Virus record (IMG/VR): IMGVR_UViG_3300031566_000026
Location: 1-63,365 of that record
Strand: one strand, 5' to 3'
DNA length: 63,365 nucleotides
Origin: a virus
Numbering within the stretch: the first letter of the stretch is position 1; every line of letters starts with the position of its first letter. The notes under the pieces are model-generated. The model ran no database searches, was not told the DNA's origin, and was given only the letters and a program-made list of their open reading frames with translations. The position numbers and the translations under genes were made by a program. Shown here piece by piece: positions 88 to 63,365 of this stretch.

Positions 88-132
88 GGTCAGGGCGGGA
101 CACCACCCCCACCTTCACCCGGCAGTGCTAAG

Positions 133-206
133 CAGGATCGACGGGACTTGAACCCGCGACCTCCGGAGTGACAGTCCGGCGCTCTAGCCATCTGAGCTAC
201 GACCCT
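133..206 (-). tRNA. tRNA-Asp(GTC)
   Basis: A full cloverleaf reads on the minus strand: a 7-bp acceptor, a D-arm starting TAGCTCAG, anticodon loop CTGTCAC (GTC) and a GGGTTCAAGTCCC T-arm. The discriminator is G, as usual for Asp. The 3' CCA is not encoded. It is the last member of the minus-strand tRNA array. Confidence 0.95.
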
Positions 207-218
207 ATGGGAGCTGGC

Positions 219-304
219 CCCCCGCCCGAGGTGTTGAACCCTGGCGCCCCGGAGTGTCAACCCGGGATACTGGCGAGGCTGTGGTCTTCCAATGCCACGC
301 GGGG
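219..304 (-). tRNA. Abnormal tRNA-Val(GAC)-like element, possibly a pseudo-tRNA
   Basis: The 3' half looks like tRNA: anticodon stem-loop CCGGG-TTGACAC-TCCGG (GAC, Val), a 5-nt variable region, a T-arm containing GGGTTCAA and a GGCGGGG acceptor strand that pairs with CCCCGCG upstream. The 5' half is wrong: roughly 11-14 extra nucleotides lie between a GGC/GCC D-type stem and the anticodon stem. It occupies a normal slot in the array between Gly and Asp. It may be a decayed tRNA or one needing unusual processing. Confidence 0.35.
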
Positions 305-310
305 GATTGA

Positions 311-383
311 AGTGCGAGACGGGCATCGAACCCGCGACCTTCAGCTTGGAAGGCTGACGCTCTGCCGATTGAGCTACTCGCAC
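311..383 (-). tRNA. tRNA-Gly(TCC)
   Basis: Acceptor GTGCGAG pairs with CTCGCAC. The D-arm begins TAGCTCAA, the anticodon loop is CTTCCAA (TCC) and the T-loop is GTTCGAT. The discriminator is T, typical of tRNA-Gly. CCA is not encoded. Confidence 0.96.
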
Positions 384-389
384 ACGGTA

Positions 390-461
390 CGGATCGGGTG
401 GGACTCGAACCCACGCATGCTTGATTAACAGTCAAGAGTTCTGCCGCTGAACTACCGATCC
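390..461 (-). tRNA. tRNA-Asn(GTT)
   Basis: Acceptor GGATCGG pairs with CCGATCC. The anticodon stem CTTGA/TCAAG holds loop CTGTTAA (GTT). The T-arm reads GTGGGTTCGAGTCCCAC and the discriminator is G, as in bacterial tRNA-Asn. CCA is not encoded. Confidence 0.96.
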
Positions 462-464
462 AAA

Positions 465-545
465 TGCACCGGGAAGGAGTCGAACCTCCACAGCCGAAGC
501 GGCGCGTTTACAGCGCGTTGTTCTCGCCACATGATCAGCCGGTGC
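465..545 (-). tRNA. tRNA-Tyr(GTA), long variable arm
   Basis: This is a class II tRNA. The acceptor is GCACCGG/CCGGTGC and the anticodon loop CTGTAAA (GTA). A CCG-CTT-CGG hairpin forms the long variable arm, and the T-arm is GGAGGTTCGACTCC. The discriminator is A. One D-stem pair appears mismatched. Confidence 0.92.
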
Positions 546-550
546 ATGTA

Positions 551-623
551 AGCTACGGGCGGGAATCGAACCCGCGACCTTCGCCTTACCATGGCGACGC
601 TCTGCCTGCTGAGCTACCGCAGC
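551..623 (-). tRNA. tRNA-Thr(GGT)
   Basis: Acceptor GCTGCGG pairs with CCGTAGC with one wobble. Anticodon stem TCGCC/GGCGA holds loop ATGGTAA (GGT). The T-arm is GCGGGTTCGATTCCCGC. CCA is not encoded. Confidence 0.95.
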
Positions 624-626
624 AAG

Positions 627-700
627 TCTGGACGGCGGGATTCGGACCCGCGACCCCCGCCACCCCAAGGCGGTGCGCTACCGGGCTGCGCCACGTCCAG
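627..700 (-). tRNA. tRNA-Pro(GGG)
   Basis: Acceptor CTGGACG pairs with CGTCCAG. The D-arm GGCGCAGCCCGGTAGCGC is typical of tRNA-Pro. The anticodon loop is TTGGGGT (GGG) in a CCGCC/GGCGG stem, and the T-loop is GTCCGAA. The discriminator is A. Confidence 0.95.
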
Positions 701-707
701 TCAAGAG

Positions 708-780
708 TGCCCCGAGCGCGACTCGAACGCGCGGCTTCTGGCTTCGGGGGCCAGCACTCTGTCCGCTGAGCTATCGGGGC
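708..780 (-). tRNA. tRNA-Arg(CCG) with C at position 33
   Basis: Acceptor GCCCCGA pairs with TCGGGGC and all arms are well formed. Anticodon stem CTGGC/GCCAG encloses the 7-nt loop CCCCGAA, giving anticodon CCG. Position 33 is then C instead of the near-universal U. The discriminator is A. Confidence 0.88.
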
Positions 781-783
781 AAA

Positions 784-857
784 CGGGACCGGAAGGAATC
801 GAACCCTCGACATCTCGCTCTGGAGGCGAGCGCTCTACCTAACTGAGCTACGGGCCC
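784..857 (-). tRNA. tRNA-Trp(CCA)
   Basis: Acceptor GGGCCCG pairs with CGGTCCC, with one wobble. Anticodon stem CTCGC/GCGAG holds loop CTCCAGA (CCA). The T-arm is GAGGGTTCGATTCCTTC and the discriminator is G, as expected for Trp. Confidence 0.94.
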
Positions 858-863
858 ATGAAG

Positions 864-937
864 TGGTCGGGGACGGAATCGGACCGCCGACGCGCGGCTC
901 TTCGGGCCGCCGCTCTACCGGGCTGAGCTACCCGACC
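864..937 (-). tRNA. tRNA-Phe(GAA) with C at position 33
   Basis: Acceptor GGTCGGG pairs with CCCGACC. The anticodon stem GCGGC/GCCGC is perfect and encloses loop CCGAAGA, so the anticodon is GAA and position 33 is C rather than U. The T-loop is GTCCGAT. It is the second tRNA of the array with C33. Confidence 0.88.
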
Positions 938-942
938 TTGTA

Positions 943-1014
943 CGCCCCCACGGGGAGTTGAACCCTCGTCCCGCAGCTTGAAAGACTGCTGTCCTGCCGT
1001 TAGACGATGGGGGC
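943..1014 (-). tRNA. tRNA-Glu(TTC)
   Basis: Acceptor GCCCCCA pairs with TGGGGGC, and the D-arm TCGTCTAACGG is typical of tRNA-Glu. The anticodon loop is CTTTCAA (TTC), the T-arm GAGGGTTCAACTCCCC and the discriminator G. Confidence 0.95.
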
Positions 1015-1021
1015 CGTGCGA

Positions 1022-1095
1022 TACCTCCAAGCGGATTCGAACCGCTGTCCTCACCTTGAGAGGGTGAAATCCTGTTCCGATTAGACGATGGAGGC
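1022..1095 (-). tRNA. tRNA-Glu(CTC)
   Basis: Acceptor GCCTCCA pairs with TGGAGGT (G1-U72 wobble). The D-arm is TCGTCTAATCGG, the anticodon loop CTCTCAA (CTC) and the T-arm AGCGGTTCGAATCCGCT. It is the first tRNA of the array in transcription order and pairs with tRNA-Glu(TTC) to cover both Glu codons. Confidence 0.93.
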
Positions 1096-40123: not shown

Positions 40124-42613
40124 TCAGATCCTCACGTGCGAGAACCGGATCGTTGGCGCTGCGGGGCGGAGTACTCGGAACTCCTCCCAACAAAGATAAT
40201 CGTTTGCATCCAGAATATGATCTAGTCCGCTCGCCTTGTCACGGATGCTCGTGCCCTCCTTATACGTCAGCCCACCAAGCGCTCGGATCAGCGCCTTGGC
40301 CCGGGGATGGATGCGGATGCGCCGGCGTGTGCCCTGGCAGAGCATCGCCTGCGTGTTGTTCACTCGGTCCACGACCAGTGGCGCCGCTTTAGGCGCTCGT
40401 ACGTCAAAGCCCGCGCGCTGTAGGATGGTGAAGTCCGTCATCCCTACCGGGGAGCTACTGTGCCGGGCCCGCCCGCTCGGGTCAGGGCAGATCACGATCT
40501 TCCGGCCCGGGTAGCGCCGCCTCAGCTCGCCGGCTACCTCCTCCGTGTTCGATGTCTGGATCTCCAGCGCATCCAGGATGTGCAGCTCGTCGGCCACCTT
40601 CACCCCGATCACGCTGGCCATCGGGTTCACGTTGAAATCCTGCCCGACGAAGATCTCGGCGCCCGTGTCCACCACGCTCGCATCCACGTTACCGGCGGGG
40701 AACGGTGCCTTGCTGAAGCTGCTGTAGACCAGCCCCTCCACATCGTCCAGTAGCTCACCGTGGATCTCCTGCCGGCCCAGGCGCGTCCCCTCGTAGGCCG
40801 CCAGCGTCTGCGTGAACCACTCCGGCGCCAGGTTGGCCCGGTTCTCGTAGCTGCTGCCCGTCACCACTACGGTGGTCGGCTGCTCCTCGATCTCCGAAAG
40901 GATCGGCACGGGCCGGGGCGTCGTGCTGATGAATATACGCGGGCGATCAGCCGAGACCTCGCGCATCCCGAACTGGAGATTTTCCCAGACCTCCCGACAA
41001 TTTTTGTACTTGGCATACTCATCCAGCCATGCCGTATCGCCTGAGAACCCACGCAGTCCGTCCGGCTCTTCCGAGCTGAAGACCGTCGCCCACGAGCCGT
41101 TCGGCCAGGTGATGCGCCGCTTCGAGGGCTCATACTTCGGCCAGGGACCGTTCGGGGCGTCCAGGCACCAGAGCGGCGGGTTGCGTAGCACGCCCGCAGG
41201 CCCCTCGATCATGTAGTCTCGGGCGTCGGCCGGGGTCTTCGCCACAAAGGCCATCCACCGCCCTGGCTCCTGCTCTGCCCGCTCGTGTACCCAACCGGCC
41301 CCGGTCGCCGTATTGTGCGTCGGGACCATACCCAGACCAGCCAGATAGAGGTGCGAGCGCGAATCCACGGCAAGGCACCGCACTGGCTCGCTAGGGACTG
41401 GATCCACCGCCACGATGTACCGATGCGTCGTCCTGTTCCGCTGCGCCGTCTCACACCGCACGCGCTCGGCCTTCCGCCGGAGTCGAAACACCTGAGTCCT
41501 TGGCGTCCATTTCACGCGCCACTTCGGCCCCACTATTCTACCATAGATTGTGGCCACACCTTCCGCCTTCACCGGCTTGTGCCCGAGCGATACAGCCAAC
41601 TCCACTACTGCATCCGCGAGCACTTCCTTCGTGGATGTAAACTCGACATTTCCCCCAGGGGCGATGAACCCGTCCGTATCCAGGAGGCCCGCCAACAGAG
41701 CCGCGCGCTGTTCGATCGAACCCCTGAGGTAGGCAGCAGGTACATGCTTATTCTTGAGGACGCCAAGGGTACGTAGAGCGCTGTGAAGGGACCCATTCGC
41801 CATCATCGCCCCTGTCACCGCATCCCGCTTGGCTGGCTTTCCACCCAACGGATAGGTCGCGCAGAACGCACCCGGTTTACGGCACGGCTTCCCACTTAAA
41901 GCCACTCCGGAGGCAGCCAACATGCCAAGAAGTTCATTGGCGTCCGTATCACCTACCGTGACCGCCCCTTTTGCGCTAGACCCGTCCCCGAGCCAGACGC
42001 CCAATACGTAGGGGTCCACTGGCAGCGGCGCGACGGGAAGATCGAGTGGCGCCGCTAGAGGGATACTGTGATTCCGCTCCCGGGCATTCGCCATCAGGGT
42101 GGAGCGGATCTCCTCCGTCGTACGAGTGCCCGGAGCAGAACGCGGGTGTACGGCGCGGCCCATGGCCTTCCTATACCGCTTGTCCCATGTCAGCCAACGG
42201 TGGTCGGCGTCTGCCACGACCTCCGAGCCGTCGTCAAACCGCACCACATAGCAGGGGCGCCCGACCTGGACCTCCGTGGCGAACGTCACCCGGCATGGAC
42301 GCCCGCCCTCGTCGAATAGTCGGTCGCCTACCCGAACCTCGCCCATCGTGGTCCAGCCATCAGGGGTAGGCAGCGGGGTGTCAAGCGCTAGGGCTTTCCC
42401 GAATCCGCGACCCGTCCTCAAAACCCAAGTCAGCCAGTCGCCCGGAGGCGGTAGCTGCTTGGGCCGGGCCCAGAAGTGCCAGTCGTGCTCAACGACCCGA
42501 AGCTCTGTCCCCGTTAGTGTGCCCAGGAACGCTCGCCATTCCGACTCCGGTAGGCTGGCCAGCAATTCGGCTTGCGATCCCGGAAATACGGTTGGTGATG
42601 CGGTTGCGGACAA
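40124..42613 (-). CDS. terL: Terminase large subunit with in-frame intein
   Basis: The precursor is 829 residues; about 361 of these are an intein. The extein has the ATPase P-loop GRGFGK/TATG, split by the intein between Lys and Thr. It also has Walker B (TAWLDEY), the coupling segment ISTTPRP and an RNase H-like nuclease with GQDFNVNP and ILDAND. It cuts and pumps DNA into the head. The likely start is TTG at 42613 with GAGGAGG 6 nt upstream; TTG at 42619 is too close to that site. The 5' end overlaps the small subunit gene by 125 nt. Confidence 0.93.
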   Translation of the reverse strand: MSATASPTVFPGSQAELLASLPESEWRAFLGTLTGTELRVVEHDWHFWARPKQLPPPGDWLTWVLRTGRGFGKALALDTPLPTPDGWTTMGEVRVGDRLFDEGGRPCRVTFATEVQVGRPCYVVRFDDGSEVVADADHRWLTWDKRYRKAMGRAVHPRSAPGTRTTEEIRSTLMANARERNHSIPLAAPLDLPVAPLPVDPYVLGVWLGDGSSAKGAVTVGDTDANELLGMLAASGVALSGKPCRKPGAFCATYPLGGKPAKRDAVTGAMMANGSLHSALRTLGVLKNKHVPAAYLRGSIEQRAALLAGLLDTDGFIAPGGNVEFTSTKEVLADAVVELAVSLGHKPVKAEGVATIYGRIVGPKWRVKWTPRTQVFRLRRKAERVRCETAQRNRTTHRYIVAVDPVPSEPVRCLAVDSRSHLYLAGLGMVPTHNTATGAGWVHERAEQEPGRWMAFVAKTPADARDYMIEGPAGVLRNPPLWCLDAPNGPWPKYEPSKRRITWPNGSWATVFSSEEPDGLRGFSGDTAWLDEYAKYKNCREVWENLQFGMREVSADRPRIFISTTPRPVPILSEIEEQPTTVVVTGSSYENRANLAPEWFTQTLAAYEGTRLGRQEIHGELLDDVEGLVYSSFSKAPFPAGNVDASVVDTGAEIFVGQDFNVNPMASVIGVKVADELHILDALEIQTSNTEEVAGELRRRYPGRKIVICPDPSGRARHSSSPVGMTDFTILQRAGFDVRAPKAAPLVVDRVNNTQAMLCQGTRRRIRIHPRAKALIRALGGLTYKEGTSIRDKASGLDHILDANDYLCWEEFRVLRPAAPTIRFSHVRI
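41312..42394 (-). mobile_element. Class 3-type intein with LAGLIDADG endonuclease in TerL
   Basis: Between the P-loop Lys and Thr lie 361 residues that begin with Ala instead of Cys or Ser and end VPTHN before Thr. Block B has Trp (DADHRW), block F has Cys (PVRCLAVDS) and the +1 residue is Thr: the WCT triplet of class 3 inteins, which splice through the block F Cys. The centre holds two LAGLIDADG motifs (VLGVWLGDG and LLAGLLDTDG). Insertion in the ATP site means the motor is inactive until splicing. Confidence 0.9.
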
Positions 42614-42992
42614 CGACAACCTCCTCTACCTGGATGGGGCCACCGTCTGCACCTGTGATCTCATGTACGCTCGTCTCGCGCCAGCCGGCCTGCGTCTTCA
42701 GATAGAAGCACATCGCCCCAAGGTTGCCACTGCGCGCCGCCTGGAGTAGCGAGCCGGCTATGGTAGTGATCGCCTTTGCGCGTCCCTCTTTATACGCTAA
42801 GGAGATTCGTGGGTCCCTTCCCATAGCTGCGTGAAATGTCGGCACGGTGATGCCGAAGTAATCCGCCACCTGGGTCTGGTTCAGTACAGCCGCCAACGTG
42901 GCGATCTCCTGGATCTGCTTATCCGTGGGCGCCCAGGGCTTCGGACCCCGCTTTGCCCCGTTCCCCTTCTTGCCGTTTGACCCGTTAGCCAT
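42489..42992 (-). CDS. terS: Terminase small subunit (HTH)
   Basis: The 167-residue product has a basic Gly/Lys-rich start, an HTH (about 25-65: QIQEIATLAAVLNQTQVADYF...) and helices typical of small terminases that recognise pac/cos DNA. The C-terminal third overlaps the large-subunit gene. Its start overlaps the ParB-methyltransferase stop by 8 nt. Confidence 0.8.
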   Translation of the reverse strand: MANGSNGKKGNGAKRGPKPWAPTDKQIQEIATLAAVLNQTQVADYFGITVPTFHAAMGRDPRISLAYKEGRAKAITTIAGSLLQAARSGNLGAMCFYLKTQAGWRETSVHEITGADGGPIQVEEVVVVRNRITNRISGIASRIAGQPTGVGMASVPGHTNGDRASGR

Positions 42993-44220
42993 GCTTCACC
43001 TTCCTCGGCTCCAGCCCCATTGCCGCCATCCGCTCAAGAATAACGGCGCAATAGCCCTCGCTTATCTCAATGCCGTAGCAGACGCGGCGCTCGTTCTCGG
43101 TTGCGACCATCGTGGTGCCCGAGCCGAGGAATGGATCAAACACGACTGCGCCGACCGAGGCGATTCGGCGGGTAATATCGGCCACTACAGAGAGCGGCTT
43201 GACGGAACCGTGCCACCCTGCATCTGCCCCCAGCTCACCAGATACTTCCGGGAGGTAGTAGCAGTCATGAACGTAGGGGTGCGCGTCCTGCCACGCGCCG
43301 TTGCCAACCTCAGATACCAGGATGGATTCTGAAGTCAGAATCCATCCTCGCCACGGGAACGTGCATTGCGCTGCCTTGTAGAGCCACAACATCCGGTGGA
43401 ACTGATGCCCCGCCGCCCTTATCGCATCTAGCCAGACGGGGAACGTCCGCGTGCCCTGAAAGGCCACGACAATGGCGTTTTCCACTGGCAGGTTTGCAAC
43501 GGCACCGCGCACTGTCCCATCCAGCAACTCAGGGGCGTCGTTTATGACTCCGGGCTGGCTGATTCCGTAGGGCGGATCGGTAAGCACGGCTTCCGCACTC
43601 TCGCCCCCCATCAGCCGCCCCACGTCCCCCGCGCTCGTCGAGTCCCCGCACATGACCCGATGTGACTTGCCCGGCACCGCCTTGCTCGGGATCTCCCACA
43701 CCTGGCCGCGCTCGGTGCCCCACTTCTTCTGAAGCTCGGCGGCACGATCTACCTGTGCGCCGGGGTCCTCGGGCTTGTCCATCTCGCGGCCGAGGTCGGC
43801 AAGCAGCTCATCCAGCGCGTCCGCGTCATAGCCCGTGCCTTCAAGCGAGCCCGCATCGGCCAGGATCTCTTGCAGCAACGCCACCAGTTGCTCGGGATCG
43901 TCTATGCCGAGCCGGGTGGTGCGGTTGTCAGCCAGGAGGATGCGGAGCGCCGTCGCGTCGTCCACGTCCACCCAAGCCACCGGCACGTCCTTGGCGCCCA
44001 TCTGCTGCGCTACCATGAGGCGATGATTTCCCACCAGCACGCGTCCGGTAGACCGCTGTGCCACGATGGTCCCGTAGAAGCCGTTGACCGCTACGCTCTC
44101 ATGGATCGCCCCGAGGTCGCCCTGGTTCACGTTGCGCGGGTGGAGCGTCAGGTCCGCGACCGGCACAAGTTCCACGGCCTCATTGAGTACCCGCATTCCG
44201 TTCGCCTTGGGCTTCGCCAT
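42985..44220 (-). CDS. ParB-like domain fused to an N6/N4 DNA methyltransferase
   Basis: The 411-residue product has an N-terminal ParB/Srx-type domain (about 15-125: LHPRNVNQGD and VLVGNHRLM). A DNA methyltransferase follows, with DPPYG near residue 218 and the SAM site FDPFLGSGTT near residue 373 (beta-type order). It modifies adenine N6 or cytosine N4; the site is unknown. It is encoded directly before the terminase genes, so it may mark DNA for protection or packaging. Confidence 0.9.
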   Translation of the reverse strand: MAKPKANGMRVLNEAVELVPVADLTLHPRNVNQGDLGAIHESVAVNGFYGTIVAQRSTGRVLVGNHRLMVAQQMGAKDVPVAWVDVDDATALRILLADNRTTRLGIDDPEQLVALLQEILADAGSLEGTGYDADALDELLADLGREMDKPEDPGAQVDRAAELQKKWGTERGQVWEIPSKAVPGKSHRVMCGDSTSAGDVGRLMGGESAEAVLTDPPYGISQPGVINDAPELLDGTVRGAVANLPVENAIVVAFQGTRTFPVWLDAIRAAGHQFHRMLWLYKAAQCTFPWRGWILTSESILVSEVGNGAWQDAHPYVHDCYYLPEVSGELGADAGWHGSVKPLSVVADITRRIASVGAVVFDPFLGSGTTMVATENERRVCYGIEISEGYCAVILERMAAMGLEPRKVKHG

Positions 44221-44232
44221 GATGAAGTCAAG

Positions 44233-45957
44233 CTAACCCGTTTGGGCTGCTGGCGTTAGGGTCATGTCGGATAGTTCAGCTTCAGCGACCATGATTCTGT
44301 AGGCGATCCAGTTCACGACCGATACCGTAACTGCATTCCCACAGAACCTGTACCTCGGCCCGTCAGCCATGTCGCAGCGGGTGCCGTCCTCGCGGGTGCC
44401 GTAGGCGGTCCAGCCTGGCGGAAAACTTTGGAGTGCCTCGCACTCGCCGGGGGTCAATCGGCGAGGGATGGCCCCCTCCATGACCTTCGGCTGGTGGTGT
44501 CCTCCGTGGGTGTTGCTCGAATGCGCCAGCGTCGGCACGGCTGCACCAGGGGGCACGATTTGATCCTGTTGGGCGCCCCCCTGAAACGCCACCACACACG
44601 GCGGTTGTCCCATCTCGAAGCCCGTGCCCAACTTGAGGGTGGGCGATAGATCATCCATAACCAGCGGGGAGGAGTCCTGTGTCACCACAATCGGCGTCCC
44701 CCGTCCCGTCCCGTCCTCGCTGGCGTCGAAGCCTTCGGCACGGAGGGTGTGGGCGAGGACCGCACCGCAGCCCATACCGGCCCGCCCCCCGCTCGGCGTA
44801 AGGATGGCGTTGGCTAGACCGTCGGTGCCTAGTTCCGCCTGCGGTGTCCCGTCGCGCCCACGGATCGCTAGGCTCTGGGCGACTAGCTGGTTCGTGCCGT
44901 TGTCGTCGCTCACGGCAAGGGGGCCTAGTCCCTCTCGGTAGAAGCCGTCGCCCGTTGCTTGAGCGCCGACGCCAGCGCCTCCGGCAGTTCCTTCCTCCGC
45001 TTCTCGGCTCGGCGCAGGATGCCCATACAAGCCTTCGGAGAGAGCAAGTATTTCGGCGGCACGTTCGCCTCTATAATCTGCGACAATGAACACGCGGCGC
45101 CGTCTCTGGGCCACGCCGAAGAATTGGCTGTCCAGGACTCGCCACGCGATGTCCAACGCCCCGACGTTTGCCAGTTCAGCGAGAACGACAGCAAAATCGT
45201 TTCCGCCGTTTGACGAGAGCAGTCCCGGGACGTTCTCGAAAAGAGCGAAGGTTGGACCGACTCCGGCATCTTGAAGCTCCTTGATGATCCGCATGGCCTC
45301 AAAGAACAGCGACGACCGCTTGCCCTCAATCAGTCCAGCCCGACGACCGGCCACCGACAGGTCTTGGCAGGGCCAGCCGCCGCAGATCACATCGACCGGC
45401 TCGACAAGTAGCGTTGCGCCGCATCCACAAAGGCGGCGTCCTCGATGATCGGAAGGTGGATGTTGCACCCGTGGCAGAGCAGCCCCCTCACCTCCCCCGT
45501 CACGTGGCAGTGATCCACCACCCACCGCCTCGGCACCTTCCCGCAGATCGCACAGACCCCGCTTTGCCGTTCCTTCATCTCGGCAACCTGCTGCGGAGTC
45601 AGCCCGTACCTCCCGGCCAACTGCCACTTGTGGCGCTGTTCCGGCGTCCCGGCCTTCCTCGTCCCCGCAACCCGGTTCGCGTGGTCGTATGCCAACTGGC
45701 ACTTCTTGCACCACGCTTGGAGCCCGTCCCCCATGTCCGACTTCCGGTAGAACTCGCTTCGCGGTTTTGTCTCCGCACACCTCGCACACCGCTTTGACAT
45801 CATGCACGTCCTCCCAGTGGGGAACATCCGGCCAATGCCTCCTCAGCACCGCCCGGCATTGCGGGTCCAACTCCACGCTCCACGCTGGCGTTAGCCCGGC
45901 ACGTTCTAGGGCTAGGTCGAAGCCACCAACGCCGGCGAACAGGGAGCCGAACCGCAT
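44233..45957 (-). CDS. C5-cytosine DNA methyltransferase carrying a nested HNH gene
   Basis: The 574-residue frame has the conserved motifs: I (FGSLFAGVGGFDLALE), IV (ICGGWPCQDLS, Cys197), VI (FENV), VIII (QRRRR), IX (RRLTPGECEALQ) and X (RFCGNAV). Between VHDV (residue 54) and VEPVDV (186) lies an abnormal stretch of about 130 residues, low-complexity in this frame, which coincides with an HNH endonuclease gene in another frame. The methyltransferase frame stays open throughout. Whether the protein tolerates this insert is unknown. Paired with the glycosyltransferase near 62 kb it could begin a 5-methylcytosine hypermodification route. Confidence 0.85.
   Translation of the reverse strand: MRFGSLFAGVGGFDLALERAGLTPAWSVELDPQCRAVLRRHWPDVPHWEDVHDVKAVCEVCGDKTAKRVLPEVGHGGRAPSVVQEVPVGIRPREPGCGDEEGRDAGTAPQVAVGREVRADSAAGCRDEGTAKRGLCDLREGAEAVGGGSLPRDGGGEGAALPRVQHPPSDHRGRRLCGCGATLLVEPVDVICGGWPCQDLSVAGRRAGLIEGKRSSLFFEAMRIIKELQDAGVGPTFALFENVPGLLSSNGGNDFAVVLAELANVGALDIAWRVLDSQFFGVAQRRRRVFIVADYRGERAAEILALSEGLYGHPAPSREAEEGTAGGAGVGAQATGDGFYREGLGPLAVSDDNGTNQLVAQSLAIRGRDGTPQAELGTDGLANAILTPSGGRAGMGCGAVLAHTLRAEGFDASEDGTGRGTPIVVTQDSSPLVMDDLSPTLKLGTGFEMGQPPCVVAFQGGAQQDQIVPPGAAVPTLAHSSNTHGGHHQPKVMEGAIPRRLTPGECEALQSFPPGWTAYGTREDGTRCDMADGPRYRFCGNAVTVSVVNWIAYRIMVAEAELSDMTLTPAAQTG
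45387..45803 (-). CDS. HNH endonuclease (endonuclease VII-like) nested in the C5-methyltransferase
   Basis: The product has 138 residues. An N-terminal zinc ribbon (CARC...CKKC) is followed by an endonuclease VII-type HNH domain: CAICG, VVDHCHVTG, VRGLLCHGCN. The ribosome site GGGAGG is formed by the methyltransferase codons for WED. The stop TGA lies inside codons for its VDVI motif. The gene is therefore inserted in another frame inside an intact methyltransferase ORF, like a homing endonuclease that keeps its host frame open. Confidence 0.88.
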   Translation of the reverse strand: MMSKRCARCAETKPRSEFYRKSDMGDGLQAWCKKCQLAYDHANRVAGTRKAGTPEQRHKWQLAGRYGLTPQQVAEMKERQSGVCAICGKVPRRWVVDHCHVTGEVRGLLCHGCNIHLPIIEDAAFVDAAQRYLSSRSM

Positions 45958-53172: not shown

Positions 53173-54396
53173 TCATGCGGCCCCCAGGTCTAGGACTTCC
53201 TGGGAACAACGACGCGCCGCGATCTCACAGTACCGTTCTTCGATCTCAATCCCGATGGCCTTCCGGCCGAGGTTCTTCGCGGCTACCAGCGTGGTGCCGC
53301 TGCCCATGAAGGGGTCGAGCACCGTTCCACCCGTGGGGGTGGCGGTGAGCCGACAGAGCCACGCCATGAGGTCGGACGGCTTCACGGTCGGGTGGCTGTT
53401 GCCCTCGCCCCGGTCGGAGCGTGAGGCTTTCGCGGTGTAGAAGAAGCGGGAGGCGCCGCCGGAGTCTGCGGGGCCGTGCCAGGCCGTCCGCACCATCTGC
53501 GTAGTGTACGAATCTTGGGCGTATGCGTTCGTGGACCCGCGCGCGGATCCTGGGTCGCGCGTGCCCCGGTTTTCCCCACAGGGGCTCTGCTCATCCAGCA
53601 GCCGCGCCGCGTCCTCGTCTAGCACGAGGTTCGCGGGCCAGCGACCAGTGGGGGTCCGTCCATCATGCCACGAGGTCGGCTTGTGCCCGCCGGCATAACC
53701 CGGCGTCCCGGTGCTCATTCCTGACCTGCTCACCTCCGCGTCGGTCATCATCCCAATCCTGCACCCGTCCACGTTGAGCCCCGCCACGCCATGCGCCAGC
53801 GCGTTCTCAGCGAACGTCCCGGCCAGCGGCTTCATGGCGAGGACGATGATTTCCCATGAGGGCTTCAGCGCCGTGCCCCAGCCATGCCAGAGGCGAGCGG
53901 CGTCGGTGGCGGGGGCGGTAATCGGAATGTCGCCGGGACGAAAACCCATTCCCTCGCCGTCAGTGCGATCATTCGCGCCAAACGTCTCGCGATCAGGAGT
54001 GCAACCGGTTATCCGCTTAACGCCAACCTGTTCCCGAACCGCCCCCGCCGCCTTGTCCAGCGACTTCGAGATGTCGAGCGACTTCGGGAACCCCGACCCG
54101 TAGAGCCACATGAGGCAGTCGCGGATCTCAAGCCCCGCGTCCTCCATCGCCACCATGAGCCGGTGATGCGTGCGCGTCCCACCGAACGCCAGGCACATAG
54201 CGCCGGGCAGGAGCGCGTCCGCGATCAGCCGCCAGAAGTGTTCACCCGGTACGCCGTGGTCCCAATCCTTGCCCATGAAGCCCAGGCCGTAGGGCGGATC
54301 GGTGATGCACGTCTCCACGGGGGCGAGCGTCGGGAGAACCTCCCGGCAGTCCCCGTGGAAAATCGTCACCGAGCCGTCCGAGTAGTAGGGCGTCAT
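53173..54396 (-). CDS. N4/N6 DNA methyltransferase
   Basis: The 407-residue product has DPPYG near residue 34 and the SAM motif [10 protein letters not shown] near residue 370 (beta-type order), with a long target-recognition middle. The ATG overlaps the upstream stop (ATGA), which supports this start over a GTG 36 nt earlier. It is the third DNA methyltransferase in the window, probably for protection against host restriction. Confidence 0.9.
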
Positions 54397-54905
54397 GGCT
54401 TGGCACGTATCAACAATCGTGCGGGCCTCCACGAGGATACCGCTCCCTTTGTGATGTCCGTTCGGAATCGGTAGTTTCTTCCGTGCGTCGTGTCCGACCC
54501 TACGTACCGGGCGAATCCATCCACGACTTCCTCATGGCGGCGGGCCTCGCGTGATTCACAGGCAGGAGAGTCGCTGCCGATCTCCAGAGCCTTGGGGCTC
54601 GAACCACCCAAGGTTGACATCTCTCCGGTGCCTTTCGGCTGTCCGGTACCAGGGTGCGCGCTCGTACCCGCCGCCAGTTCTTCGCCATCGCCGTAGAAGT
54701 GCCCCCACCACGAATCGAAATACTCACGGTTAGGCTCGCCGCTGCCCTGAAAGATGAGCGCCGCCTGCCACGTCTCCCATGCGAGTCCCTCGATTCTCTC
54801 GGTGGGCCATTCCTCTCGGGGTGAACCATGAAGTGGGCAAACAGGGGAGACGCGAATGCACACGGCCTCATCCCACTGACACAGACAGCCATCGTCTTCG
54901 GGCAT
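54393..54905 (-). CDS. Cys-rich protein containing the 143-bp repeat
   Basis: The 170-residue product has [10 protein letters not shown] near the N-terminus and a segment ([18 protein letters not shown]) encoded by a 143-bp DNA repeat also present at 56262-56404. Its start overlaps the upstream stop as TGATG. Unknown role. Confidence 0.5.
54533..54675. repeat. 143-bp dispersed repeat, copy 1
   Basis: This matches 56262-56404 without gaps, with about 13 differences by hand count. Both copies encode the same peptide segment in the same frame of two otherwise different genes. The high DNA identity suggests recent duplication or gene conversion. Confidence 0.85.
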
Positions 54906-60974: not shown

Positions 60975-61598
60975 TCAGTCGTTGACCCGCGCGAGTACCC
61001 GCTGCGCGTATAGCTCGCAGCCTGGCTTGCTCACACACCCGCTGTATCCGTCCAGTGCCTGCTCCAGCGCACGCCGCAGAGCACGCCCGAAGTACAGCCG
61101 GTAGATATCGGCTCCATAACACACGCTGACGGGGCCAGCGGTCAGATCGTCCGATCCGCACGCCACGCGGTGCCGACCGCCAGCTACGGCGTGGAAAGGC
61201 ATGACCTGCATCCAGCCGACAGCGCCGGCATAGCTCGTGGTGTCGGGGACCAGCCACGGGTTCTCCTCCTGCATGATGCTGGCGAACAGGCGCGGCCTCA
61301 TATCCCGCTTCTCACCTTCCAGCACCAAGGCCCACGCAGCTACCCGTGCCATCCAGGGGTCCCGCACCCGGCCAGTCTTCAGCAGCGCGTACTCGAGCGG
61401 GAAGACGTCACGCACGTACTTGCGGATCACCTCGTCGCCTGTGTCCTGGAGCACCTGCGCCCTCCGCTTCATCGCCGCAACCTGCACCATCGGGTCAGGC
61501 TCCACGCGCTCCCGTCCCCACAGTTGAGGCGTAGGCGGAGCCAGGTAAACCGCTCCGGCCACTAGCGCCGCAGCCAGGATCGTTCGGATGATCGTCAT
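60975..61598 (-). CDS. Lytic transglycosylase with signal/anchor sequence
   Basis: The 207-residue product has an N-terminal hydrophobic segment (about 5-20, signal peptide or anchor). A transglycosylase SLT-like domain follows: FASIMQEENP with the likely catalytic Glu111 or 112, and AGAVGWMQVMP (125-134). It cleaves peptidoglycan glycan strands. It lies far from the 2-7 kb lysis-like cluster, so it may act in entry or as a separate exported lysin. Confidence 0.85.
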   Translation of the reverse strand: MTIIRTILAAALVAGAVYLAPPTPQLWGRERVEPDPMVQVAAMKRRAQVLQDTGDEVIRKYVRDVFPLEYALLKTGRVRDPWMARVAAWALVLEGEKRDMRPRLFASIMQEENPWLVPDTTSYAGAVGWMQVMPFHAVAGGRHRVACGSDDLTAGPVSVCYGADIYRLYFGRALRRALEQALDGYSGCVSKPGCELYAQRVLARVND

Positions 61599-61909
61599 GG
61601 AACCTCCAGGAATGCGTCCACGCCATCGAATACCGGAATGCCCAGATTCCGGGCCTGCTCCACCTCCAGGTCCGCGCCCGCCGATTCCCCCGGCATGCGC
61701 ACGAGGGCGTCACAGGCTCGGATCCATTCCATGTCCAGGCGCATCCAGTCCTCCCAAGGGTGGGGCGATACCGTGTGCCACAGGTGCGAAAGATGGGGCA
61801 GGTACGGTAGGTGCCCGGCGTCGAAGATCCGGTCGGCCGCGTGGATGGCGTTGCGGACGTTCACCACCACGTCGCCCTTCGTGTAGGGCCCGGCGATGTA
61901 GACTCTCAT
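61595..61909 (-). CDS. DUF4406-like protein (nucleoside deoxyribosyltransferase-like fold)
   Basis: The 104-residue product has the pattern of DUF4406/nucleoside 2-deoxyribosyltransferase-like proteins: MRVYIAGPYTKGD, GHLPYLPHLSH, CDALVRMPGESAGADLEVEQARNLG. Such proteins bind nucleosides or nucleotides. ATGA overlaps both neighbours. It may take part in base or nucleotide metabolism. Confidence 0.8.
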   Translation of the reverse strand: MRVYIAGPYTKGDVVVNVRNAIHAADRIFDAGHLPYLPHLSHLWHTVSPHPWEDWMRLDMEWIRACDALVRMPGESAGADLEVEQARNLGIPVFDGVDAFLEVP

Positions 61910-62226
61910 ATCTTCGTCTCTTTCGGTTTCTTCACCAGTTCTGCCCTTAGGATTTGGGCGCTCATCGCCGCGCTGTTCACGCAGGCGGCCTTCCGGCAGC
62001 ACAGTACCGTCTTCGTGCGCTCCATCTCGCGCTCCAGGTCGTAGGCGTCCAGTGGCCCGCCGCACTCGCACGTCAGCGCCACCCCGGCTGCGTTCTTCGC
62101 GTCACGCGCCACCAGCCGCATCCGGGCCCGTGCCTTCATCGTGCTCGGCTTCCAGGCCACCGGGCCAGGGTAGAAGGCGTCCCCTCCGGCGCCTGCCAGC
62201 TTGCCCAAGTTACCTCCGCGCTTCAT
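61906..62226 (-). CDS. Basic protein with Cys-rich segment
   Basis: The 106-residue product has a basic N-terminal half and CECGG followed by CCRKAAC near residues 55-85, probably zinc-binding. AAGGAGG precedes ATG. It lies directly after the glycosyltransferase, with an ATGA overlap. Confidence 0.5.
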   Translation of the reverse strand: MKRGGNLGKLAGAGGDAFYPGPVAWKPSTMKARARMRLVARDAKNAAGVALTCECGGPLDAYDLEREMERTKTVLCCRKAACVNSAAMSAQILRAELVKKPKETKI

Positions 62227-63281
62227 ATATCGTCCTCCTTGCTTTTTACCGGCCGCAGGGCGTTTCGCTTGAAGGGAGAATAATCGACGAGGTGCTGGTC
62301 CCGGCCCCACCGCTCCGTCACCGTCGTCACGTCCGGATGCTGCGTAACGAGGGACTCCGCCATCTGCCGCCGTCCATCCTCACGGTACAGCTCCTCCGTG
62401 TTTCCTCCTCCCATCGTCATTGTCGGCATCTTCTTACAGCTCCACGCATTGAAGAGCGCCGTACACCACCCAGCCTTGAGGGCGCGTAGGCTAAGGTCCG
62501 TATCCTCGTTATACCGCCCGCGCCAGCGGAACGGTAGCGCGTTAAGGATCAGAATGCAGGAGTAGATCCGCGTGTTCAGCCGGAAAGGCGGCTGCTTCTC
62601 TCGGCGAAGGACGAAGAACTCATAATTGGGACCCGCCATTGCCACGTTCTCGTAGCGGTCCGCGAAGTCCTCTATCGGGGTAAGCGGATTCTCATCAATA
62701 ACCTTCACCTTCAGGTTCCGGTTCAGGCGATAGAACCCGTCGATGTTGTCATCGAGGATCCAGTGCCGCTTCGCCCCCGTCCCGAGCGCGTGCTCCCAGA
62801 CCCAGTTACGAGCCGGAATGGAGCCCTGCCCCAGGTTTGAGAACGGGAGAGTCAGGACCTGCTCCGACGCGATGACCGCGGCATACTGCTCCCGCTCTTG
62901 CGGCTCGATGACGACATGGTAGGGGATCCCGAGACGTTCCAACGCCTTCACGGTTAGGCGCGATTCCCAGCGCCCCTTCGAGATCACGTAGACTGGGTAT
63001 CGGTTCGGGGGCACGACGCACGGCGGCGCGTTCCTCACGCTCTGCTGCAGGTACTCCATCGTCGGGTACCAGATGGATTTCCTCCGCGCCGGATCCTCAC
63101 CGACGAGGAGGAGAAATGCCCGCCGGTCCTCCTCATTCCGGAACTGCACGGTGATCGAGTCTGCCGGAGTCTTATCCTCTGAGATGAACTCCGGCATCCC
63201 GATCCAATGGGGCTTCCACCAGTCCAGGGCTTCGAGATCGAAGAGCGTGCTTTGTCCGTCTTCGTTCCGTTCATCGTCCAC
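62223..63281 (-). CDS. TET-associated-type glycosyltransferase for modified DNA bases
   Basis: The 352-residue product matches the TET-associated glycosyltransferase family: VYVISKGRW, PYHVVIEPQE, IPARNWVWEHA, the HWILDDNIDGF acceptor/metal region, and RGRYNEDTDLSLR plus TMGGGNTEELY in the C-terminal half. Family members are encoded in phages beside TET/JBP oxygenases and attach sugars to oxidised 5-methylcytosine. The GTG start at 63281 follows GGAGGAG. The partner oxygenase would be expected upstream, beyond the window. Confidence 0.88.
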   Translation of the reverse strand: MDDERNEDGQSTLFDLEALDWWKPHWIGMPEFISEDKTPADSITVQFRNEEDRRAFLLLVGEDPARRKSIWYPTMEYLQQSVRNAPPCVVPPNRYPVYVISKGRWESRLTVKALERLGIPYHVVIEPQEREQYAAVIASEQVLTLPFSNLGQGSIPARNWVWEHALGTGAKRHWILDDNIDGFYRLNRNLKVKVIDENPLTPIEDFADRYENVAMAGPNYEFFVLRREKQPPFRLNTRIYSCILILNALPFRWRGRYNEDTDLSLRALKAGWCTALFNAWSCKKMPTMTMGGGNTEELYREDGRRQMAESLVTQHPDVTTVTERWGRDQHLVDYSPFKRNALRPVKSKEDDI

Positions 63282-63365
63282 CGGGCGTCTCCTCCACCAG
63301 ACCGCGCAGGAAGTTGGCCGCATCGCGTCTGTGCTCCGGATCGTTCCACCACAGGTTGACGCCGG
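63271..63365 (-). CDS. C-terminal end of an upstream gene (partial)
   Basis: The last 30 codons of an open frame (ending NFLRGLVEETPGGR) run off the right edge and overlap the glycosyltransferase start by 11 nt. It cannot be assigned; a DNA-modification gene is possible from position only. Confidence 0.55.
   Translation of the reverse strand, partial: GVNLWWNDPEHRRDAANFLRGLVEETPGGR

What the first reader, a model, noticed from the sequence alone, without database searches (positions are those of the whole stretch)
62223..63281. Likely cytosine hypermodification route: C5-methyltransferase plus TET-associated glycosyltransferase
The protein at 62-63 kb looks like the glycosyltransferases that cap oxidised 5-methylcytosine in phages, and the same operon encodes a C5-methyltransferase. 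A TET/JBP oxygenase should link them and would lie beyond the right edge. The methyltransferase of this phage also carries the HNH insert, so its activity matters for the route.
Basis: partly seen in the sequence, partly recalled or inferred. Interest (0 to 1): 0.8.

Follow-up and report, generated by a model that had tools for sequence, protein, structure and literature searches.

The report
Phage DNA sugar-transferase without TET partner

Summary
In detail: 62223-63281 (-) is an intact GT-A glycosyltransferase of Pfam PF20691 (TAGT; E 5e-42), and an HNH-interrupted C5-methyltransferase lies about 16 kb away. The proposed C5-MTase -> TET -> TAGT route does not hold. No Tet_JBP gene is in the window, in 93 viral contigs carrying close relatives (3.4 Mb), in 6 cultured phages, or in 16 whole bacterial genomes; the same search finds TET in true TET-TAGT phages. 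dCMP-hydroxymethylase relatives are also missing (0 of 73 contigs). What does accompany this GT is a ~56-residue domain without a Pfam, PHROG or NCBIfam model ("MPEF domain"; 143 of 147 loci), often with a ParB_N domain, UDG-like domains, family A DNA polymerase (fused in at least three contigs), or a place just before the terminase genes. A related ParB|TAGT|terminase cassette is in about 885 of 5,426 complete E. coli genomes. Best reading: a DNA-directed GT acting at replication or packaging by a TET-independent route with unknown acceptor; a protein acceptor is not excluded.

The parts
62223..63281 (-). MPEF-TAGT glycosyltransferase, 352 aa (GTG start; 366 aa if the ATG at 63323 is used)
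   Evidence: PF20691 E 5e-42; phrog_842 E 3.3e-38; start, SD and overlap read directly; AF2 pLDDT 87.5, pTM 0.85; GT-A fold, Z about 14 to GT2-type enzymes and GalNAc-Ts
63051..63218 (-). MPEF domain (residues 36-91 of the 366-aa form), no Pfam/PHROG/NCBIfam model
   Evidence: Local HMM; present in 143 of 147 relatives as a fused domain or separate ORF; no family model matched
62253..62999 (-). GT-A catalytic domain (residues 109-357)
   Evidence: PF20691 residues 109-306; conserved block to about residue 357
62745..62753 (-). DDN donor-sugar/metal motif (D191-D192-N193)
   Evidence: Invariant in 47 of 47 relatives
62502..62510 (-). N-E-D motif (272-274), expected catalytic base/acceptor loop
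   Evidence: Invariant in 47 of 47
63289..63295 (-). Shine-Dalgarno GGAGGAG, 7 nt before the GTG
   Evidence: Read from sequence
63271..63363 (-). C-terminal end of the upstream gene (GVNLWWNDPEHRRDAANFLRGLVEETPGGR*), UDG-superfamily-like; overlaps the GT start by 11 nt
   Evidence: HMM of UDG-like partners: E 1.7e-5 among 1,484 window segments, score 24.2 against a best of 7.4 in 5,000 shuffles; the partner domains are PF03167 UDG
44233..45957 (-). C5-cytosine methyltransferase (ATG at 45957; open frame to 46086), interrupted by an HNH ORF
   Evidence: PF00145 in three stretches, total E 1.4e-48
45387..45803 (-). Endonuclease VII-type HNH ORF embedded in the C5-MTase, other frame, 138 aa
   Evidence: PF02945 E 3.4e-16; no Rfam intron in 43000-63365
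42985..44220 (-). N4/N6 DNA methyltransferase with a ParB_N-like N-terminus, directly before the terminase genes
   Evidence: PF01555 E 4e-13; weak PF02195 (E 0.015, below its cut-off); local ParB HMM hit

Best explanation
The gene encodes an active nucleotide-sugar-dependent GT-A glycosyltransferase of a distinct TAGT clade, defined by an N-terminal MPEF domain. It most likely adds a sugar to phage DNA during replication or just before packaging, masking it from host nucleases. MPEF and a partner (here probably the UDG-like protein encoded immediately upstream and translationally coupled; in other phages a ParB_N protein or a fused DNA polymerase) probably direct it to DNA. It works without TET and, in most relatives, without a recognisable pyrimidine hydroxymethylase. 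Shown: family, fold, intact catalytic motifs, MPEF partnership, absence of TET, UDG-like upstream remnant. Inferred: DNA as acceptor, targeting role of MPEF/UDG/ParB, masking function. Unknown: acceptor atom and sugar.
For: Family, motifs and fold. MPEF accompanies the GT in 143 of 147 loci, including loci found with GT-only patterns; three of the four exceptions are cut off at a contig end. Fusions to DNA-acting domains: GT-UDG-exo-PolA (L019), MPEF-GT-exo-PolA (L023), MPEF-GT-PolA (L075), MPEF-GT-UDG (L009, L017, L018). ParB_N-MPEF|GT in 42 loci and all three in one ORF in 6; ParB_N fold supported by modest Foldseek matches. The GT sits before TerS/TerL or near replication genes. T-even TAGT is reported to glucosylate already glucosylated hmC in DNA (PMC13216743). 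ParB|TET|TerL and ParB-MTase|TerS|TerL occupy the same genomic slot. UDG-like remnant upstream in the window and a UDG-like gene next to the GT in close relative L005.
Against: No enzyme that would supply a hydroxylated base is found as a recurrent partner, so DNA as acceptor rests on family, fusions and position only. UDG-superfamily domains also occur in phage family A polymerases without any GT. The window is a fragment, so other partners may lie outside it.
Confidence: 0.6

Rival explanations
1. The GT modifies a protein (for example its ParB/UDG partner, the polymerase, the terminase or a host protein) and not DNA.
For: No base-hydroxylating enzyme is a recurrent partner. Fold neighbours include many protein O-GalNAc/GlcNAc transferases, although that reflects the GT-A fold in general. 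RefSeq names some E. coli relatives 'GREB1-related'; from my own knowledge, GREB1 is a eukaryotic relative reported to glycosylate a protein.
Against: Fusions to DNA polymerase and UDG-like domains and the pairing with ParB_N fit DNA at least as well; T-even members act on DNA.
Confidence: 0.2
2. T-even-like route: a phage dCMP (or dUMP) hydroxymethylase makes the hydroxymethyl base in the nucleotide pool and the GT glycosylates it in DNA.
For: T6 TAGT lies next to gene 42. Aeh1, POP12, Kuja and henriette 12B8, which carry MPEF-type GTs, have thymidylate-synthase-family genes.
Against: No PF00303 in the window, in 73 viral contigs totalling 3.1 Mb, or in Vibrio phages 1.124.O and 1.076.O; the control T6 gp42 was detected.
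Confidence: 0.08
3. One reading: C5-MTase makes 5mC, a TET beyond the right edge oxidises it, the GT caps 5hmC.
For: PF20691 carries the TET name; a C5-MTase is in the window; true TET-TAGT pairs exist.
Against: 0 of 93 contigs, 6 cultured phages and 16 whole genomes with this GT clade have TET; the adjacent upstream gene is UDG-like; the C5-MTase is HNH-interrupted, 16 kb away, and found in only 5 of 50 relatives.
Confidence: 0.05
4. The GT acts on surface polysaccharide (host-surface conversion).
For: GT2-like GT-A fold; a few loci have a nucleotide-sugar epimerase, a GT9-like protein or FkbM methyltransferases nearby.
Against: The neighbourhood is replication or packaging, with fusions to DNA polymerase, UDG and ParB.
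Confidence: 0.04

Closest known systems
TAGT (PF20691), T-even beta-glucosyl-HMC-alpha-glucosyltransferase (T6 YP_010067197)
   Same: Same Pfam family and GT-A fold (PMC13216743)
   Different: T6 enzyme has no MPEF domain and matches the clade HMM at only 14 bits; it lies beside gene 42, and no hydroxymethylase is found here
TET-TAGT operons (Nonlabens phage P12024L gp26-gp27, Synechococcus phage S-CBWM1 gp9-gp10)
   Same: PF20691 glycosyltransferase
   Different: There the GT is next to Tet_JBP and has no MPEF; here MPEF is present and TET absent
ParB|TAGT|TerS|TerL cassette of E. coli, Salmonella, Lactobacillus and haloarchaeal viruses (YnaK-type)
   Same: TAGT-family GT without TET, paired with a ParB_N protein before the terminase genes
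   Different: Those GTs lack MPEF and form a separate clade; in the window the neighbour is UDG-like, and the ParB_N domain is fused to a methyltransferase elsewhere
Solitary TAGT homologues of PMC13216743 (288 of 753 phage genomes)
   Same: TAGT without alpha- or beta-GT, function undefined
   Different: That paper's passages read here mention no MPEF, ParB, UDG or polymerase partners; alpha-/beta-GT were not searched for here

Membership tests
TAGT family (PF20691) | Profile match above the gathering score | tested here: met
   144.6 bits against 27.5
TAGT family (PF20691) | GT-A fold with DDx metal motif and ED catalytic motif | tested here: met
   AF2 model and PDB comparison; DDN and NED invariant
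TET-TAGT cytosine hypermodification route | Tet_JBP oxygenase in the same phage, next to the GT | tested here: not met
   None in the window; adjacent gene UDG-like; none in 93 contigs, 6 phages, 16 genomes of the clade. The part of this genome beyond the right edge was not available
TET-TAGT cytosine hypermodification route | Functional C5-cytosine methyltransferase | tested here: inconclusive
   Gene present with N- and C-terminal blocks but split by an HNH ORF
TET-TAGT cytosine hypermodification route | 5-glycosyloxymethylcytosine in virion DNA | not testable with these tools
   Needs nucleoside mass spectrometry
T-even hmC glucosylation route | dCMP hydroxymethylase (PF00303) | tested here: not met
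   None in the window or in 73 contigs of the clade
T-even hmC glucosylation route | alpha- or beta-glucosyltransferase providing the first sugar | not tested
   PF11440/PF09198 were not searched
MPEF-TAGT clade (defined here) | MPEF domain with the GT | tested here: met
   Residues 36-91, and 143 of 147 relatives; the window lies in a 100/99-supported clade with L004, L005 and L007
ParB|TAGT|terminase cassette | ParB_N gene directly upstream and terminase directly downstream of the GT | tested here: not met
   Upstream gene is UDG-like; terminase is 20 kb away with a ParB_N-MTase before it

The most novel reading that the evidence does not exclude
MPEF-TAGT enzymes glycosylate DNA without any prior oxidation or hydroxymethylation of the base, for example on an exocyclic amine or another unmodified position, with MPEF and a ParB_N or UDG-like partner presenting the base. 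This would be a one-enzyme DNA glycosylation system widespread in phages and prophages, including a related ParB|TAGT form in E. coli.
Probability: 0.22. Interest if true: 0.88.

Novelty: new variant of a known kind. Interest (0 to 1): 0.6.

Why it matters
The family name and database labels (TET-associated; beta-glucosyl-HMC-alpha-glucosyltransferase) predict a chemistry that this branch does not have the genes for. If these enzymes act on DNA, there is an unrecognised route to glycosylated phage DNA, encoded by a compact cassette that is common in phages and prophages. A related cassette is present in about 16% of complete E. coli genomes, including the laboratory strain W, so it can be tested directly. 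It bears on how phages evade restriction and CRISPR systems, and on glycosylase-type defences that recognise sugar-decorated DNA.

Tried and rejected
TET sought in the window, relatives, cultured phages and whole genomes: absent; one 13-bit match with a stop inside in a 334-kb contig was discarded. alone had no ringing control; the controls cover it. Thymidylate-synthase-type hydroxymethylase: absent. Search for a universal third partner by clustering neighbours and scanning the nearest genes: none beyond MPEF/ParB; radical SAM (9 loci), FkbM, epimerase and clamp occur only in subsets. Group I intron to explain the HNH insert: no Rfam match. Extending the right edge by an exact 27-base match in viral contigs: no hit. 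P12024L GT as query for TET-linked TAGTs in IMG/VR: only 3 loci. PDB profile search with the GT alignment: no sequence match. Deep branches of the GT tree (P12024L, S-CBWM1, T6) are saturated and not used. MPEF alone was not folded separately; it had no family model match. Literature searches for ParB plus glycosyltransferase and YnaK gave no description of the pairing in the open-access library.

Full report
1. The observation. The window is a 63,365-base linear virus record with most genes on the minus strand, so its right edge lies upstream (5') of the gene in question. The ORF at 62223-63281 starts with GTG, 7 nt after a GGAGGAG ribosome-binding site, and its first 11 nt overlap the end of another ORF. 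It matches PF20691 TAGT with E 5e-42 and phrog_842 with E 3.3e-38. The DDN (191-193), NED (272-274), R341 and H344 positions are invariant in 47 relatives and present here, so the enzyme looks intact. AlphaFold2 gives pLDDT 87.5 and pTM 0.85, and the PDB comparison is with GT-A enzymes of the GT2, cellulose/hyaluronan-synthase and GalNAc-transferase type (Z about 14). The C5-methyltransferase is also real. It is interrupted by an endonuclease-VII-type HNH ORF in another frame (45387-45803). It lies about 16 kb from the GT, and a shared operon is not demonstrated.

2. No TET. Tet_JBP (PF12851) is absent from the window, from 50 viral contigs with the closest relatives, from 43 further contigs and 6 cultured phages carrying the same GT type, and from 16 whole bacterial genomes with such prophages; the 93 contigs total 3.36 Mb. 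The method works: it finds TET in Nonlabens phage P12024L, Synechococcus phage S-CBWM1 and Pelagibacter phage HTVC112P, and the model matches all five phage TET proteins tested. In P12024L and S-CBWM1 a TAGT is truly adjacent to TET. Those two TAGTs lack the MPEF domain and are remote from the window protein (22% identity; 3.5 bits to the clade HMM). 'TET-associated' is therefore the right description of another branch of the family, not of this one.

3. No nucleotide-level hydroxymethylase either. PF00303 is absent from the window and from 73 contigs (3.1 Mb), while T6 gene 42 is found as control; in T6 the TAGT sits next to gene 42. The smaller cultured phages Vibrio 1.124.O and 1.076.O lack it too. 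Four larger phages with MPEF-type GTs do have PF00303 genes, so for them the T-even route remains possible. C5-MTases are present in only 5 of 50 contigs.

4. What does accompany the GT. The N-terminal ~56 residues (W...W..MPEF...VHF.nEeD...Fa.LvGq....tKSiWYP) match no Pfam, PHROG or NCBIfam model. In 147 viral loci this MPEF domain occurs with the GT in 143: as a separate ORF (65), at the C-terminus of a ParB_N protein (42), fused to the GT (30), or with all three in one ORF (6). Nearly half of these loci were found with patterns from the GT domain alone, so the association is not a search artefact; three of the four exceptions are truncated at a contig end. The ParB_N assignment is supported by modest Foldseek matches to ParB/Noc structures.

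5. Links to DNA. The GT is fused to family A DNA polymerase in L019 (GT-UDG-exo-Pol), L023 and L075, and to UDG-superfamily domains in L009, L017 and L018. Its neighbours are terminase and portal genes (a TerL-like family in 59 of 153 loci) or replication genes such as the sliding clamp and polymerase. In the window itself, the slot before the terminase is held by a ParB_N-like/N4-N6 methyltransferase. In Pelagibacter phage HTVC112P and Microbacterium phage Terij a ParB|TET pair stands near the terminase. Different DNA-modifying enzymes thus appear to share one place and one kind of ParB partner.

6. The gene at the right edge. The ORF that overlaps the GT start ends in GVNLWWNDPEHRRDAANFLRGLVEETPGGR. 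This matches the C-terminus of the UDG-like partner domains found next to or fused with the GT in other phages: E 1.7e-5 among 1,484 window segments, score 24.2 against a best of 7.4 in 5,000 shuffles. The complete versions score as PF03167 UDG (weakly in some), and close relative L005 also has one beside its GT.

7. A wider TET-free cassette. The ParB_N part of the Erwinia prophage is about 70% identical in DNA to E. coli ynaK. In E. coli W-type prophages the gene after ParB is a TAGT (PF20691 E 3.6e-34, no MPEF), followed by TerS and TerL; 885 of 5,426 complete E. coli genomes carry at least 80% of the pair. The same order ParB|TAGT is in Salmonella phage SPF_0923, Lactobacillus phage phi jlb1 and haloarchaeal virus HHTV-2, none of which has TET or PF00303.

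8. Mechanism. Shown: family, fold, intact motifs, constant MPEF partner, no TET, UDG-like neighbour. Inferred: the enzyme takes a sugar from a nucleotide sugar and adds it to phage DNA at replication or packaging, aided by MPEF and a DNA-binding partner, probably as protection against host nucleases. Not known: sugar and acceptor. Because no dedicated hydroxylating enzyme recurs, either an unrecognised enzyme supplies the acceptor, or the GT acts on an unmodified DNA position, or the acceptor is a protein.

9. Relation to known work. PMC13216743 (2026) reports solitary TAGT homologues in 288 of 753 phage genomes and suggests novel transferases. I found no open-access paper describing the MPEF domain or the ParB/UDG/polymerase linkages, but many journals are not held.

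Noticed in passing
L218:4028-5741 (E. coli, record NZ_CP026085.1); 885 of 5,426 complete E. coli genomes: ParB/YnaK followed by a TAGT glycosyltransferase, then TerS and TerL; annotated hypothetical or 'GREB1-related'. K-12 MG1655 keeps only a ynaK remnant.
   Followed up: partly
L164:4375-6597 (Pelagibacter phage HTVC112P) and L168:1-1580 (Microbacterium phage Terij): ParB_N|TET (|FkbM methyltransferase) upstream of the terminase: a TET without GT in the slot where other phages have ParB|TAGT.
   Followed up: partly
window 40124-42619 (-): Large terminase with an internal LAGLIDADG/Hom_end segment (PF14528 E 4.7e-5), probably an intein or homing insert.
   Followed up: no
window 45387-45803 (-): Endonuclease VII-type HNH ORF nested in another frame inside the C5-MTase, between the parts of the methylase profile; the methylase frame stays open through it and no intron was found.
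   Followed up: partly
window 132-1095 (-): Array of 11 tRNA genes at the left end.
   Followed up: no
window 61595-62071 (-): DUF4406 / nucleoside 2-deoxyribosyltransferase-like gene directly downstream of the GT; a similar gene lies downstream of the GT in L051.
   Followed up: no
window 53173-54432 (-): Second N4/N6 methyltransferase (PF01555), 59% identical over 155 residues to one in L012/L013, contigs that also carry the GT and a C5-MTase.
   Followed up: no
L012, L018 and others, about 1.4 kb upstream of the GT: Radical SAM/SPASM protein in 9 loci, with other small methyltransferases; may act on the base or the sugar.
   Followed up: no
L006, L020, L024, L036, L094, L095, L113: Two tandem MPEF-type GTs in one locus, suggesting a second sugar or different specificities.
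   Followed up: no
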